This document shows, piece after piece, positions 1-4,663 of a stretch of 6,139 nucleotides of DNA; positions within the stretch are counted from its first letter, which is position 1; each line of letters opens with the position of its first letter. Source of the DNA: Streptosporangiaceae bacterium (lineage in GTDB: Bacteria > Actinomycetota > Actinomycetes > Streptosporangiales > Streptosporangiaceae). The stretch spans positions 1 through 6,139 of the forward strand of contig JASIBJ010000148.1 in the NCBI GenBank assembly GCA_030045215.1, in the 5' to 3' direction. The notes beneath the pieces are model-generated. The model was not told the origin of the DNA, made no database searches, and was given only the letters and a program-made list of their open reading frames with translations. The position numbers were made by a program, and so were the translations under genes.

Positions 1-122
1 GAGGCTAGTGCGCGTTGTCTTGGCACTTATTGGTTTGCGGTCACAGTGTTAACGAGGTTATGTCCGCCGTCCTCGGCCCGCTTCCCCTGGATCAACTACC
101 GAAGTCGAAGCCAGTCACCCCC
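1..122 (-). ncRNA. ssrA: tmRNA (transfer-messenger RNA), 5' part, truncated by window edge
   Basis: This is the 5' end of tmRNA, the RNA that together with SmpB frees stalled ribosomes and tags the unfinished peptide for proteolysis. On the minus strand it opens with GGGG at 122-119, followed by a GGCUUCGACUUCG block, then GGGGAAGCG and a pseudoknot-like GC stretch. This is the same order of elements as I recall for the mycobacterial tmRNA 5' half. The conserved AAUAAGU precedes the resume codon, GCC at 24-22. The tag frame then reads A-K-T-T-R-T-S-L before the sequence ends at base 1. The tag's 3' end, the remaining pseudoknots and the 3' tRNA-like half lie outside the window. The 5' end at 122 was set by aligning the distance between GGGG and UUCGA with that mycobacterial sequence; 121 is also possible. 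The identification is secure. The tag sequence depends on placing the resume codon correctly. Confidence 0.93.
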
Positions 123-263: not shown

Positions 264-306
264 CCCCCGTGGGCGCTGGCGGTGGCCGAAGATGCACCCA
301 CGGGGG
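264..306. other. Perfect 10-bp inverted repeat with 23-nt loop
   Basis: CCCCCGTGGG (264-273) and CCCACGGGGG (297-306) are exact complements separated by 23 bases. This is a strong hairpin on either strand. On the minus strand it is followed by TGTCTCATC rather than a T-run. It may be an actinobacterial-style terminator without a U-tail, or one helix of a larger folded RNA. Confidence 0.55.
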
Positions 307-481: not shown

Positions 482-2530
482 TCAGGATCCAGTGCGAATG
501 TTCCGCAAGAACGCTCCCGCCACCGAGGCCGCCGAGTCCGAGGGCGACTTGACCAGTTCTGCTACCGCAAAAGCGATATCTCCCTGGTACCCGACGAACC
601 AGCTAATGCTCAGGTTGCCCTTGCCCCCGAATCCCGCGTTCCCGACCTGACCGTAGACGTTTCCGCCGATGTTCGCGGCCGAGCCCGATCCGTGGGTCAC
701 GGCGTCGTGCATGAGGCCCTGCAGCTCCGACAGGACCTGCGGGCTGATCGTTTCCTTGGCTGCCGCGACGCTCGGACCTGAGGACTGCGGGCCGGCCACG
801 AGCGATGGGGCGTGCCAGCGCCCCGAGTCGGCAGTCCCCGCCGCCAGGGCCATTGCCAGCGGGCTGACGAGCACGTCGCCCTGGCCGATTGCGTCGGCGG
901 CGACCTTGCCCTCCCCCGCCTCCTGGCCTATGGTGCCGGAGAAATAGCCGGTGAGCGGCAGCTGCCACTGCGCGCCGATGCCGAACTCAGTTGCGGCGAA
1001 CGAAAGCTGTGACTGGAATGACGGGATCTCGGACAGGACCGTGAAGGCGGTCGAGCAGTGCAGCGAAAAGTCCTTGTCGAAGGTTGAGTTCGTCCGCAGG
1101 CTGACCGGGTCAGCGGGGACGTTGGAGAAGTCGCGGCCATTGACCTGGCTGCTCGGCGAGCACCCGATCTTGCTCGCGGGCATGACGCGACCGGTCGCCA
1201 GCAAGGCCGCTCCAGAGACGATCGTGAATGCCTGGCCCGGCTGATATTCGCCACCGAGCGGGCTCAGCTGCGGCATTCCGGCGGCCTGGTGGCTTGAGAC
1301 CGCGAGAATCTTGCCCGAGTTGGCCTGGACCGCGACAAGGACCGCCGACCCAGACAAGCCTGCTAGGGCGCTGTTGGCTGCCAGCTGATCGCCGTAACTC
1401 AGCGTGGTGCGCACCGGCGTGCCACGCAGCCCCTGCCATCGCTGCGGCTCGGACGGCTCATTACCCTTCGCGTTCTCGATGACCACCGCCGTGGTGGGCG
1501 TTCCGGCCAGCCGCGACTGGAACGTCTGCTGCAACCCAGACAGTCCCACGGTCATGCCCGGCCGATAGGGCACTCCGTCCTCACGAAGAATCTGCGCCGT
1601 CTCGGTTCCGACCGCGCCCACCACATCCGGGGCAACGCTGTCATAGAGCCGCTCCCGAATGTGCCGAATCTGGATACCGGGAATGCCCACGAGCCGACTG
1701 CGCAGGCTCGCGTACCTGGCTGGAGTCAGAGTGAACAGCTCCTGGAACTGATTCGAGAGCGACGCCCTGATCTGTCCGGCTACCTGAGCGGCCGGGAGGT
1801 CAGGCAGTTCCAGCGCGGCGACCAGGCGCTCGGCGAATGTCAGGACCTCGTTACCGTGCAGCTGATTCGGGATCACGCCGATCAGGTACGTGCTGGATGG
1901 CACCGAAAGCGGCTGGCCGTCCGATGCGAGGAGCGCAGCCCGCGGGTACGCCTCCTGAACCACGGCCAGCCTGTCGCCAGCGCGCAATTGCGGCACGATC
2001 ACAGACGGGCTCCAGACAACCCGCCAGGTCGACCCCGACTCCTGAAGGCGGAACCTGCCACTGTACGTCCACTGCAGGCCGCTTGAACCGAGATCGATCG
2101 ACGCGTCGAACAAGGCGACCGCGGCGTTGCCATCCTGGCTGATACGGCCCATGCTCAGCACCAGATCGGTGGCATCGAGGTTGTCGTACGCGCTGCTGAG
2201 CTCTGCGGCCACGGCCTGCGGCTGTCCCGTCGTGAGAGCCGCTGCCCCTTGGTAGTTGCCCTGCTCCCAGTCGAGCAAGAACTGATAGACGGTCGGCTCG
2301 GCTGACGAGCCGCCGCCGCGGACCAACCCGACGGCGACCAGTGCGCCGATAACAATCACTACCGATGCGCGCTTGAGCATCGGCCGCGACCGCAGTGCCA
2401 CCCCGAATACCCCGGTCTTGCCGTCCCCGTCCCTGGCCTTCTTGGTCAGGGATACACGCATCGGCGGCCCGGGCCGCGGAGCACGATGCGCCCCGGCTCG
2501 CGGATTGCGGTTACCGCTGCGAAGCGCCAT
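482..2530 (-). CDS. Class B penicillin-binding-protein homologue with degenerate active site (probable pseudo-transpeptidase)
   Basis: This 682-residue protein is built like a class B PBP. It has a basic N-terminal tail, one membrane anchor (about 55-71), and a MecA_N/NTF2-like domain (about 76-185) ending in the family pattern W-x-V-x-W-x-P-S-x-x-x-P-x-L. A dimerisation region (about 186-370) and a transpeptidase-like domain (about 395-676) follow, so the bulk should lie outside the membrane. Active relatives acylate a serine and cross-link peptidoglycan, but here all three motifs are lost. SxxK reads Q433-A-F-T436 after an intact YQPG, SxN reads H491-C-S493, and KTG reads Q628-V-G630. Their spacing (+58, +195) is normal, so the alignment is firm. 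C457 and C492 remain and could form a disulfide. The ATG at 2530 is supported by GGAG six bases upstream and lies 11 bp after smpB. M24 and M51 are alternative starts. The frame is intact. Likely role: scaffold or regulator in wall synthesis (inference). Confidence 0.9.
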   Translation of the reverse strand: MALRSGNRNPRAGAHRAPRPGPPMRVSLTKKARDGDGKTGVFGVALRSRPMLKRASVVIVIGALVAVGLVRGGGSSAEPTVYQFLLDWEQGNYQGAAALTTGQPQAVAAELSSAYDNLDATDLVLSMGRISQDGNAAVALFDASIDLGSSGLQWTYSGRFRLQESGSTWRVVWSPSVIVPQLRAGDRLAVVQEAYPRAALLASDGQPLSVPSSTYLIGVIPNQLHGNEVLTFAERLVAALELPDLPAAQVAGQIRASLSNQFQELFTLTPARYASLRSRLVGIPGIQIRHIRERLYDSVAPDVVGAVGTETAQILREDGVPYRPGMTVGLSGLQQTFQSRLAGTPTTAVVIENAKGNEPSEPQRWQGLRGTPVRTTLSYGDQLAANSALAGLSGSAVLVAVQANSGKILAVSSHQAAGMPQLSPLGGEYQPGQAFTIVSGAALLATGRVMPASKIGCSPSSQVNGRDFSNVPADPVSLRTNSTFDKDFSLHCSTAFTVLSEIPSFQSQLSFAATEFGIGAQWQLPLTGYFSGTIGQEAGEGKVAADAIGQGDVLVSPLAMALAAGTADSGRWHAPSLVAGPQSSGPSVAAAKETISPQVLSELQGLMHDAVTHGSGSAANIGGNVYGQVGNAGFGGKGNLSISWFVGYQGDIAFAVAELVKSPSDSAASVAGAFLRNIRTGS

Positions 2531-2541
2531 GTGCCACTCCG

Positions 2542-3006
2542 CTATCTCCGCCGCCGCAGCTCACGGTCGACCTCTCGGGCTGCGTCCCGCTTCGCCAAGT
2601 CGTGTCGCTTGTCGTAGCTGCGCTTGCCGCGCGCCAGTCCCAGCTCGATTTTCACCTTCCCGTCCTTGAAGTACAAGGACAGCGGGACTAGCGTCAGTCC
2701 GCGCTCTCTGGTCGAGCTAGCCAGCCGGTCGATCTCTTTGCGGTGCAGCAGCAGCTTGCGAACGCGCCGCGGCTCGTGATTGGTCCAGGTGCCCTGCGTG
2801 TACTCCGGGATGTGTACCCCGTGCAACCAGGCTTCACTGTCAGTAATGACGGCGAATCCGTCGCCCAGCGAAGCCCGCCCCGCCCGCAATGACTTGACCT
2901 CGGTCCCGGTCAGCACGAGCCCGGCCTCGACGGTGTCCTCGATCGTGTAATCATGCCGGGCACGCCGATTCCTGGCGATGATCTTCGTGCCTTGCTCGAC
3001 GGCCAC
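2542..3006 (-). CDS. smpB: SsrA-binding protein SmpB
   Basis: SmpB binds the tRNA-like part of tmRNA, delivers it to the A site of ribosomes stalled without a stop codon, and fills the empty decoding centre and mRNA channel with its C-terminal tail. The 154 residues match the family end to end. They include the RRARHDY block (14-20), GTEVKSLR (34-41), [15 protein letters not shown] (65-79), KLLLHRKEI (84-92) and [20 protein letters not shown] (103-122), followed by GKRSYDKR (127-134) and a very basic tail ending in four arginines. The length is normal. The start is GTG at 3006, chosen because MAVEQGTK matches the usual N-terminus; no strong Shine-Dalgarno precedes it, so translation may be coupled to ftsX, which ends 22 bp upstream. 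The stop is TAG. Its RNA partner ssrA lies in the same direction beyond the PBP gene. Confidence 0.98.
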
Positions 3007-3028: not shown

Positions 3029-3940
3029 TCAGACACGCAGGTAGCGCCTGAGTGTGAGGAAGGACGTGGCACCGCAGATGAGCAGGCCGGTGATCAGCGC
3101 GATAATGATCACCTCGGCGAGGTCGGTCGTGGTGAGCGTCACCCCGTAAGGGAAGTACGACTGCAGGCCATTGAGCCAGAGCGCCTTCACCGCGACCAGC
3201 AACCCGGCCGAGACCAGCCAGCCGATGAAGCCAGCAACCATCCCCTCGACAAGGAACGGGAGCTGCACGTAGAAGTTGGAGGCTCCCACCAGGCGCATGA
3301 TCGAGGTCTCCCGGCGCCGGTTGAATGCTGACAGCCGGATCGTGTTCGCGACCAGGAGGATCGCGGCCACCAGCAGGAAGATCGCGATGATCACGACCGC
3401 AGTTCGCGCGCCGTCGAGCAGCTTGTAGAAGTTATTCAGGATGGAGGCGTCATCTACTACCTGGGCCACGCCCGCGAGACCGTCAACGCTGTTCGTCACC
3501 GACACGGCGTCGGCCTGGGTGTTCCTGAGCCTGATCTCGAATGAACTCGGGATCTCATCGGGCGAGGTGTACTTGACCAGCGTGGGGCTGTCGGCGAACT
3601 CCTGCTTGAACAGTGCCACCGCCTGGGGCTGGGACAGGTACGTGACCGACGTGACCTCGGGGAGCGACTCCAGCGTCTGCTGGATGGAGGCGACCTCGGA
3701 CTGAGTGACAGCGCCGTTCTTGGCACAGTTCGCGCTGATCGCCTGGCTCGTGCACAGGTAGACCGATAGCTGAACCCGGCTCTGCCAGTAGGACCTGGTG
3801 TTGTCCACCTGCTTGACGAACAGCAGGCCGGTGCCCAGCAAGGAGAGGCTGATCGCGACCACCACGACGAGCGCGATGGTCATGGTCAGGTTCCGGCGCA
3901 GGCCAATCCACACCTCGCTGAGGACAAACTGGGCACGCAT
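3029..3940 (-). CDS. ftsX: Cell-division protein FtsX (ABC transporter-like permease subunit)
   Basis: FtsX is the membrane half of the FtsEX complex. It carries no known transported substrate; it passes the ATPase state of FtsE to extracellular peptidoglycan hydrolases or their activators at the division site. The 303-residue protein has the family layout: a short cytoplasmic start, TM1 about 20-42, a large extracellular domain about 43-178, TM2 about 179-203, TM3 about 225-252 and TM4 about 275-297. The conserved cytoplasmic segment RRRETSIMRLVGAS (208-221) follows TM2. The extracellular domain holds two cysteines, C63 and C72, that could form a small disulfide loop. The ATG at 3940 has an AAGGA ribosome-binding site nine bases upstream. 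It follows ftsE by 33 bp, clearly the same transcription unit. No hydrolase gene adjoins it here, so its extracellular partner must be encoded elsewhere or is unknown. Confidence 0.97.
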   Translation of the reverse strand: MRAQFVLSEVWIGLRRNLTMTIALVVVVAISLSLLGTGLLFVKQVDNTRSYWQSRVQLSVYLCTSQAISANCAKNGAVTQSEVASIQQTLESLPEVTSVTYLSQPQAVALFKQEFADSPTLVKYTSPDEIPSSFEIRLRNTQADAVSVTNSVDGLAGVAQVVDDASILNNFYKLLDGARTAVVIIAIFLLVAAILLVANTIRLSAFNRRRETSIMRLVGASNFYVQLPFLVEGMVAGFIGWLVSAGLLVAVKALWLNGLQSYFPYGVTLTTTDLAEVIIIALITGLLICGATSFLTLRRYLRV

Positions 3941-3973: not shown

Positions 3974-4663
3974 TCAGTAGGCCTGGCCGTACACCCCGCG
4001 CGACTGATCGCGCACTACCTTGCCGTATTCGAGCTCGATGACACGCTTGCGCATTGAGTCGACGATCGCCGCGTCGTGCGTCGCCATGACGACGGTAGTG
4101 CCTGTCCTGTTGATCCGGTCCAGCACCTTCATGATGCCGATGGAGGTGGCCGGGTCGATGTTTCCGGTCGGCTCGTCTGCCAGCAGAATCGTCGGCCGGT
4201 TCACGAACGCGCGGGCCATCGCCACTCGCTGCTGCTCGCCCCCGGACAGTTCGTCAGGCATCCTGTCCCGCTTGCCCTCCAGCCCCACGAGGTCGATGAC
4301 CTCAGGGACCACCTTCCTGATGAACCGCCTCGGCTTGCCGATGACCTCAAGGGCGAAAGCGATGTTCTGGTAGACGTTCTTGTTCGGTAGCAGCCTGAAG
4401 TCCTGAAACACGCATCCGATGCGGCGGCGTAGGTGCGGAACCTGCCAGTTAGTCAGTCGGGCGAGGTCTCTCCCAGCGACGTGGATACGGCCCTCGGTGG
4501 CCCGCTCTTCCTTGAGCACAAGGCGCAGGAAGGTCGACTTGCCTGACCCTGATGGGCCGACCAAGAAGACGAACTCGCTCTTCTCGATATCCAGAGTCAC
4601 GTTCTCCAGCGCCGGACGGCCCTGGTTTGGGTACGTCTTGGTCACGTTATCGAAGTGGATCAC
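3974..4663 (-). CDS. ftsE: Cell-division ATP-binding protein FtsE
   Basis: FtsE is the cytoplasmic ATPase that pairs with FtsX. ATP binding and hydrolysis drive conformational changes that switch on septal peptidoglycan hydrolysis. All ABC signatures are intact in 229 residues: Walker [10 protein letters not shown] (36-44), Q-loop glutamine Q87 in VFQDFRLLP, signature LSGGEQQR (139-146), Walker B ILLADE (159-164) with catalytic E164, D-loop GNID (167-170) and switch histidine H196 in ATHD. The C-terminal extension with RDQSRGVYG is typical of actinobacterial FtsE. The start is GTG at 4663, giving the standard MIxFDNVTKxYP opening. The ribosome-binding site is poor (GATGG close to the start). 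It is the first gene of the ftsE-ftsX-smpB-PBP run; the promoter should lie in the 158 bp shared with the divergent small gene, but I see no convincing -35/-10 pair. Confidence 0.98.

What the first reader, a model, noticed from the sequence alone, without database searches (positions are those of the whole stretch)
482..2530. PBP homologue that has lost all three transpeptidase motifs
Directly readable from the sequence: the residues aligning with SxxK are Q-A-F-T (codons 1234-1223, straight after an intact YQPG), SxN is H-C-S (1060-1052) and KTG is Q-V-G (649-641). The distances between the three sites are those of an active class B PBP, and the rest of the fold is kept, including the MecA_N-like domain and the cysteine pair. 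The reading frame is intact over 682 codons, so this is not decay into a pseudogene but looks like a maintained non-catalytic protein. By inference it could be a scaffold, an allosteric partner for an active PBP or SEDS protein, a muropeptide sensor, or an extracellular partner of FtsX encoded in the same operon.
Basis: partly seen in the sequence, partly recalled or inferred. Interest (0 to 1): 0.78.

Follow-up and report, generated by a model that had tools for sequence, protein, structure and literature searches.

The report
Family-wide dead penicillin-binding protein
A protein related to a cell-wall-building enzyme, encoded just after the smpB gene, has lost its whole catalytic site in every readable copy sampled from a large family of actinobacteria, yet it is kept intact and its front domain is conserved more strictly than in a working relative, so it probably now has a structural or regulatory job.

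Summary
The 682-codon gene at 482-2530(-) is a class B PBP by domains (MecA_N, PBP_dimer, Transpeptidase) with SxxK=QAFT, SxN=HCS, KTG=QVG. It is not a recent loss: of 150 sampled genomes of the family, 147 gave a readable copy and none has an intact motif. Three genomes of another family of the same order carry a gene directly after smpB with all three motifs intact. The inactive copies form one clade (support 100), so one old loss is the simplest history. Selection is purifying (median dN/dS 0.21). Constraint has moved: over 136 genome pairs, compared with an active paralogue of the same genomes, the dead protein's transpeptidase domain is less conserved in 136 and its MecA_N domain more conserved in 125. 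No lysine, histidine, arginine or acid is conserved in the dead domain, so a rebuilt site is unlikely. Best reading: a maintained pseudoenzyme, an auxiliary non-catalytic partner in peptidoglycan synthesis working mainly through MecA_N; the partner is unknown. A 'headless' paralogue, motif-intact where fetched, has a full-length match in 112 of 121 order genomes but in none of the three with an intact smpB-linked copy.

The parts
482..2530 (-). pseudo-PBP gene, 682 aa, ATG start 11 bases after the smpB stop, RBS-like CGGAG ending 6 bases before the ATG
2315..2371 (-). single N-terminal hydrophobic segment (residues ~54-72), probable membrane anchor; no lipobox Cys in the window's protein
   Evidence: read from the sequence; no predictor was run
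1976..2305 (-). MecA_N (NTF2-like) domain, residues 76-185; more conserved in the inactive family than in active relatives
1457..1945 (-). PBP_dimer (pedestal) domain, residues 196-358
497..1339 (-). Transpeptidase domain, residues 398-678; family signature kept, catalytic motifs lost
1223..1234 (-). SxxK site, now Q-A-F-T (Q433, T436)
1052..1060 (-). SxN site, now H-C-S (residues 491-493)
641..649 (-). KTG site, now Q-V-G (residues 628-630)
1160..1162 (-). C457, one of the invariant cysteine pair (159 of 159 near-complete inactive sequences)
1055..1057 (-). C492, the other cysteine, middle residue of the former SxN site (159 of 159)
2542..3006 (-). smpB, directly upstream, same strand
   Evidence: name by recall; synteny marker
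1..122 (-). ssrA (tmRNA) 5' part, downstream on the same strand, cut by the window end
   Evidence: RF00023, E 3e-18
3029..3940 (-). ftsX
   Evidence: name by recall; conserved neighbour
3974..4663 (-). ftsE
   Evidence: name by recall; conserved neighbour

Best explanation
It is an old pseudoenzyme derived from a MecA_N-type class B PBP. SHOWN by sequence: genes with all three motifs intact sit after smpB in related lineages; in one clade that covers the sampled family, every readable copy has lost S..K, SxN and KTG; the reading frame, domain signatures, cysteine pair and place after smpB are kept under purifying selection; constraint has shifted from the transpeptidase domain to MecA_N; no alternative set of catalytic residues is conserved. 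INFERRED: the protein is held at the outer face of the membrane and works as an auxiliary non-catalytic partner in a peptidoglycan-synthesis or division complex. The transpeptidase module would serve as a structural arm, and MecA_N (the allosteric module in PBP2a-type enzymes, from general knowledge) as the main contact surface for a protein or for peptidoglycan. Cross-linking is left to other PBPs of the same genome.
For: 0 of 147 readable family genomes with an intact motif. Of 162 distinct smpB-linked inactive sequences, 159 have all three sites readable and none of the 162 has one intact (a search independent of the alignment found no SCN[TS] or K[TS]G[TS]A and only chance GSxxK strings elsewhere). 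Intact copies L128-L130 after smpB in 3 of 3 genomes of another family of the order, and L091, L093 further out. Inactive copies plus L127 one clade at 100. dN/dS median 0.21, range 0.12-0.59. Same-genome control: mean identity MecA_N 0.497 vs 0.391 and TP 0.393 vs 0.514 for dead protein vs active paralogue, bootstrap difference 0.23 (0.18-0.28). No K, H, R or D/E at 90% or more in the TP domain; C457 and C492 invariant. Other PBPs with intact motifs remain in the same genomes. Precedents: B. subtilis PBP2B keeps a structural role in division when catalytically dead (PMC5656894, abstract); C. difficile PBP3 promotes asymmetric division independently of its own catalysis (PMC12713402, sections 8 and 12).
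Against: No partner, localisation or phenotype is known; everything about function is inference. In M. abscessus PBP-lipo, an actinobacterial class B PBP that I recall as MecA_N-type, catalysis is required (PMC9170245, passages), and in C. difficile the enzymatic activity of PBP3 still matters later in spore formation. No structure could be modelled, so the cleft was judged by sequence only. The branch joining the inactive clade to L128-L130 has support of only 75, and in the TP-only tree the inactive domains lie apart from all intact ones, L128-L130 included. No tmRNA was found beside L127-L130, so their shared place with the window rests on the smpB side. Some dN/dS values are as high as 0.59.
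Confidence: 0.6

Rival explanations
1. Muropeptide or peptidoglycan sensor: the former cleft, or MecA_N, still binds wall fragments non-covalently and passes a signal to a partner.
For: In the window's own subfamily the replacement residues are themselves fixed: T436 and Q628 121 of 121, Q433 116 of 121, as expected if the altered cleft still does something. MecA_N is the domain that gained constraint.
Against: Across the family the cleft residues vary widely (position 433: T, E, Q, M, G, S, L, P, D, F, A, I; position 628: Q, V, I, L), against one conserved ligand in the cleft. Pfam shows no linked signalling domain in the window's protein.
Confidence: 0.2
2. Dedicated allosteric activator of a SEDS glycosyltransferase (FtsW/RodA type), the non-catalytic half of a SEDS-bPBP pair.
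For: Class B PBPs are described as selective allosteric activators of their SEDS partner, a role separable from catalysis (passages of PMC12713402). The pedestal domain is present.
Against: In G001 each of three SEDS genes lies on the contig of another class B PBP with PGSxxK and KTG; other genomes were not checked for pairing. The pedestal shows no extra constraint: entropy 2.01 inactive vs 2.00 active.
Confidence: 0.12
3. Extracellular partner of FtsX, regulating wall hydrolysis as degenerate EnvC does.
For: ftsE-ftsX-smpB-PBP order is conserved where the stretch reaches that far. Catalytically inactive LytM factors that regulate wall hydrolases are known (abstract of PMC8416486 as shown in the listing; the EnvC-FtsX link is recalled).
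Against: Copies with intact motifs share the neighbourhood (L128-L130), so the linkage predates the loss; in some genomes ftsX is a further 1 kb or so upstream (L054, L062, L066, L069).
Confidence: 0.06
4. An enzyme with a rebuilt catalytic site, for example using the Ser/Thr now at the lysine position.
For: 138 of 162 distinct inactive copies have S or T at the old lysine position, and 11 keep Ser at the nucleophile position.
Against: 21 of 162 have glycine at the lysine position. No base, acid or lysine is conserved at 90% anywhere in the TP domain; the polar residues that are (C457, C492, T494, S556) are also kept in the intact relatives.
Confidence: 0.03

Closest known systems
MecA_N-type class B PBPs (Enterococcus faecium PBP5, Staphylococcus PBP2a)
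   Same: Domain order MecA_N, PBP_dimer, Transpeptidase; the best solved match by sequence is a PBP5 chain, 8f3x (E 1.9e-19).
   Different: All three catalytic motifs are absent; below the NCBIfam cut-off of every PBP model matched. No resistance role is suggested.
The intact smpB-linked relatives (L128-L130, L091, L093)
   Same: Directly after smpB on the same strand; the same three Pfam domains in the two scanned, L128 and L093.
   Different: PGSTFK, SCN and KTG intact. tmRNA found near L091 and L093 but not L128-L130.
Mycobacterial PBP-lipo (MAB_3167c, Rv2864c)
   Same: Actinobacterial PBP involved in septal peptidoglycan synthesis (title and passages of PMC9170245); MecA_N architecture is recalled, not tested.
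   Different: Its catalysis is required: the S364A version does not rescue growth in M. abscessus.
B. subtilis PBP2B (S309A) with PBP3; C. difficile PBP3 (S299A)
   Same: Class B PBPs with roles independent of catalysis (PMC5656894 abstract; PMC12713402 sections 8 and 12).
   Different: Those are laboratory point mutants of active enzymes; here the dead state is natural and found in every readable copy of the sampled family.
Headless paralogue of the same order (L258, L262, L084-L087, L264-L275, L282)
   Same: MecA_N and a related Transpeptidase domain.
   Different: Motifs intact in all 19 fetched; in the 4 scanned by Pfam only the end of PBP_dimer (from about position 115 of 180) matches, in 2 of them below the cut-off.

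Membership tests
Class B penicillin-binding protein (by domains) | PBP_dimer followed by Transpeptidase domain | tested here: met
   both over Pfam cut-offs
Class B penicillin-binding protein (as an enzyme) | SxxK, SxN, KTG motifs | tested here: not met
Class B penicillin-binding protein (as an enzyme) | covalent beta-lactam binding | not testable with these tools
   needs purified protein
PBP2a/PBP5 (MecA) subfamily | MecA_N domain at the N-terminus | tested here: met
   41.3 bits against cut-off 22
PBP2a/PBP5 (MecA) subfamily | NCBIfam MecA, MecC, MecD or PBP4(5) score cut-off | tested here: not met
   14-72 bits against cut-offs 700-1500
PBP-lipo-like lipoprotein PBP | lipobox cysteine at the N-terminus | tested here: not met
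   no Cys in residues 51-90 of the window protein, read by eye; several relatives have one
Pseudoenzyme (maintained) | catalytic residues lost but domains, locus and purifying selection kept over a clade | tested here: met
SEDS-bPBP pair member | dedicated SEDS partner | tested here: inconclusive
   10 genomes, PF01098: 2-4 SEDS each; in G001 all three share a contig with another class B PBP
Degenerate FtsX partner (EnvC-like in role) | binding to FtsX | not tested
   only gene order was seen

The most novel reading that the evidence does not exclude
A naturally split class B PBP: one ancestral function divided between two proteins, a headless enzyme that kept catalysis but lost much of the pedestal domain, and this pseudo-PBP that kept the pedestal and a strengthened MecA_N but lost catalysis, and the two work together. 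A full-length match to the headless kind is listed in 112 of 121 sampled order genomes and in 0 of the 3 whose smpB-linked copy is intact. Against: G001, the sampled genome whose copy is closest to the window's, has no full-length match listed (it has two other intact paralogues, L071 and L089); neither have G018, G030, G141, G168 and G194; G060 has a headless copy although only the start of its smpB-linked gene was seen; the three intact-copy genomes are one family, so this is a single phylogenetic contrast; the origin of the headless copy is unresolved on the tree; and no interaction was tested.
Probability: 0.18. Interest if true: 0.85.

Novelty: new variant of a known kind. Interest (0 to 1): 0.68.

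Why it matters
Laboratory mutants suggest that class B PBPs have jobs apart from cross-linking; a natural lineage that gave up catalysis and kept the protein is a place to see that job alone. Here it is found in every readable copy of a large sampled family, with motif-intact relatives after smpB in another family of the same order as a built-in comparison. The shift of constraint to MecA_N points to a domain whose role outside PBP2a-type enzymes is little understood (general knowledge). It also warns annotation: where a source names these proteins, it says 'cell division protein FtsI/penicillin-binding protein 2', which as an enzyme name cannot be right.

Tried and rejected
Recent loss or sequencing error: rejected, 0 of 147 readable family genomes has an intact motif. 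Pseudogene: rejected by open frames, synteny and dN/dS. Rebuilt active site: disfavoured. Mis-registered alignment: a search of the 162 inactive sequences for the motifs themselves (after residue 250 of each stop-to-stop frame) found no SCN[TS], no K[TS]G[TS]A and seven GSxxK strings, all away from the real site. FtsX partnership from gene order: weakened. Origin of the headless paralogue by duplication of the smpB-linked gene: tried on a TP-only tree, not resolved. Promoter and terminator scan: nothing above shuffles. Literature: no description of a family-wide natural class B pseudo-PBP in the listings (CC-licensed library only; titles and abstract starts). PMC7617827 was opened at the abstract and not used. 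One search was an empty script.

Limits. Only the best 120 of 781 homologues were listed. The 162 include L127 (another family) and three partial copies: L222 shows none of the three sites, L220 only the first, L219 the first two. The 147 include L044 and L221, which show no smpB in the stretch fetched, and L219. G034, G060 and G107 are not in the 147: G034 has a copy after smpB with SxxK and SxN lost, third site not reached; G060 shows smpB and about the first 50 residues before the stretch ends; G107 has no smpB match. dN/dS is a simple NG86 estimate over 30 rows, 29 distinct pairs (window-L002 is listed twice), one a 188-codon fragment. Pairs are not independent. ARAGORN gave a tmRNA for L091 and none (Rfam finds it), so its counts are lower bounds.

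Full report
WHAT IS THERE. The gene at 482-2530(-) is an intact 682-codon frame. It starts 11 bases after the smpB stop with an RBS-like CGGAG. ssrA follows on the same strand; ftsX, ftsE and prfB lie upstream (gene names by recall, order seen in relatives). Pfam gives MecA_N, PBP_dimer and Transpeptidase, all above cut-off.

IT IS A CONSERVED STATE. A protein search gave 781 homologues, of which the best 120 were listed, one of them the window's own protein. Of the 121 rows aligned, all have T436, Q628, G630, C457 and C492, 116 have Q433, and none has an intact motif. A scan of named genomes found 19 loci, all in metagenome-assembled actinobacteria, several titled Streptosporangiaceae.

FAMILY SURVEY. 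Of 150 genomes drawn from the family of G001 (the genome of L002), 149 had a match at E 1e-90 or better. Places became loci or were fetched. 147 of 150 gave a readable copy and 0 of 147 has an intact motif; in 145 smpB lies on the same stretch. Of the other three, G034 has a copy with the first two motifs lost and the third not reached, G060 only the start of one before the stretch ends, and G107 no smpB match. Over everything fetched, 187 loci are smpB-linked, 168 of them distinct: 6 have all three motifs and 162 have none; no sequence has just one or two. The 162 include L127 and three partial copies; 159 have all three sites readable. At the lysine position the 162 carry S 82, T 56, G 21, Q 1, A 1 and one gap, never K. 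Of 144 inactive copies with at least 1300 bases downstream, 135 show a tmRNA there on the same strand (a lower bound).

WHERE THE MOTIFS SURVIVE. The order search brought in three genomes, G152-G154, which are the whole of another family as held. Their smpB-linked copies (L128-L130) read PGSTFK, SCN, KTG. No tmRNA was found in those stretches, nor beside L127. Two further intact copies after smpB, L091 and L093, have a tmRNA downstream; in L111 a tmRNA lies between smpB and an intact PBP gene. G151, alone in its family as held, has an inactive smpB-linked copy, L127, with serine kept, lysine lost, SCT and LAG. On a tree built without the motif columns, the 43 inactive copies used and L127 form one clade at 100, next to L128-L130 at a weak 75. 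One loss before the split of the family and G151 is the simplest reading.

SELECTION AND ITS SHIFT. NG86 dN/dS over 30 rows (29 distinct pairs) has median 0.21, range 0.12-0.59; window against L001 0.19 and against L002 0.13. Mean column entropies for 59 inactive and 34 intact sequences are MecA_N 1.76 vs 2.30, pedestal 2.01 vs 2.00, transpeptidase 1.98 vs 1.60. At matched pedestal identity (0.30-0.35), MecA_N identity is 0.445 in inactive and 0.263 in intact pairs, and transpeptidase identity 0.361 vs 0.419. The cleanest control uses 17 genomes that have both the dead protein and a headless intact paralogue. Over the same 136 genome pairs, MecA_N is more conserved in the dead protein in 125 and the transpeptidase domain (motif columns left out) less conserved in 136; the bootstrap interval of the difference, 0.18-0.28, excludes zero. 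So the transpeptidase domain was relaxed but not abandoned, and MecA_N gained constraint.

NO HIDDEN ACTIVE SITE. Among 159 near-complete inactive sequences, the polar residues kept at 90% or more inside the transpeptidase domain are C457, C492, T494 and S556; there is no lysine, histidine, arginine or acid. Intact relatives also keep these four. In the window's own subfamily the substituted residues are fixed, so the altered cleft may still matter there, for packing or for a ligand.

THE OTHER PBPs. Ten genomes examined hold 4-11 transpeptidase-domain genes each. One kind, headless, has MecA_N and an intact transpeptidase domain but lacks the front part of PBP_dimer. A full-length match to it is listed in 112 of 121 order genomes; it is not among the listed matches of G001, G018, G030, G141, G168 and G194, nor of the three genomes with an intact smpB-linked copy (the list was read by eye and counted). 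All 19 fetched have intact motifs. G001 has other intact paralogues, L071 and L089. Whether the headless kind arose from the smpB-linked gene is not resolved.

LIKELY WORKING. The protein has a hydrophobic anchor and extracellular-type domains (inference). Dead class B PBPs can still be needed: B. subtilis PBP2B S309A supports division if PBP3 supplies catalysis (PMC5656894, abstract), and C. difficile PBP3 promotes asymmetric division independently of its own catalysis, although its activity matters later in sporulation (PMC12713402, sections 8 and 12). Against a general rule, M. abscessus PBP-lipo needs its serine (PMC9170245, passages). I therefore favour an auxiliary, non-catalytic partner in peptidoglycan synthesis working mainly through MecA_N. 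A dedicated SEDS partnership is less likely: in G001 all three SEDS genes share a contig with another class B PBP, and the pedestal shows no extra constraint.

NOVELTY. Eight literature searches and passages of two reviews on actinobacterial PBPs and beta-lactamases (PMC6273383, PMC9146315) showed no description of such a family; the library holds only CC-licensed papers, so absence there is weak evidence. By kind it is a pseudoenzyme variant of a known protein family.

Re-reading the calls changed these points: the three partial copies among the 162, the missing tmRNA beside L127-L130, the RBS spacing, the number of independent homologue rows, and the class B status of the G001 SEDS neighbours (now tested).

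Noticed in passing
L097, L099, L101 (genomes G231, G209, G263): Off-locus relatives with Ser to Thr at the nucleophile (PGTAFK), SCN intact and KTG changed to TTG or TNG; each genome also has a motif-intact copy (L096, L098, L100). It looks like a second, independent, partial loss in another lineage.
   Followed up: no
L258, L262, L084-L087, L264-L275, L282: Headless class B PBP: MecA_N plus motif-intact transpeptidase with the front part of the pedestal domain missing; common across the order.
   Followed up: partly
window 2315-2371; L049, L061, L128, L174 and others: 15 of the 25 N-termini printed have a lipobox-like Cys just after the hydrophobic segment (for example VVTGC, MLTAC, MLVAC); the window and its nearest relatives lack it: a probable change from lipid anchor to membrane helix. 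No predictor was run.
   Followed up: no
window 264-306 and 339-365: Two G+C-rich inverted repeats between the pseudo-PBP stop and ssrA (13-base arms 92% complementary; 9-base arms 100%), not followed by a T run; possible transcript end or processing site.
   Followed up: no
L111 (genome G411): tmRNA lies between smpB and a motif-intact PBP gene, unlike the usual smpB-PBP-ssrA order.
   Followed up: no
L127-L130: smpB-linked PBP genes without any tmRNA in the stretches fetched, by ARAGORN or Rfam: ssrA seems to lie elsewhere in these families.
   Followed up: no
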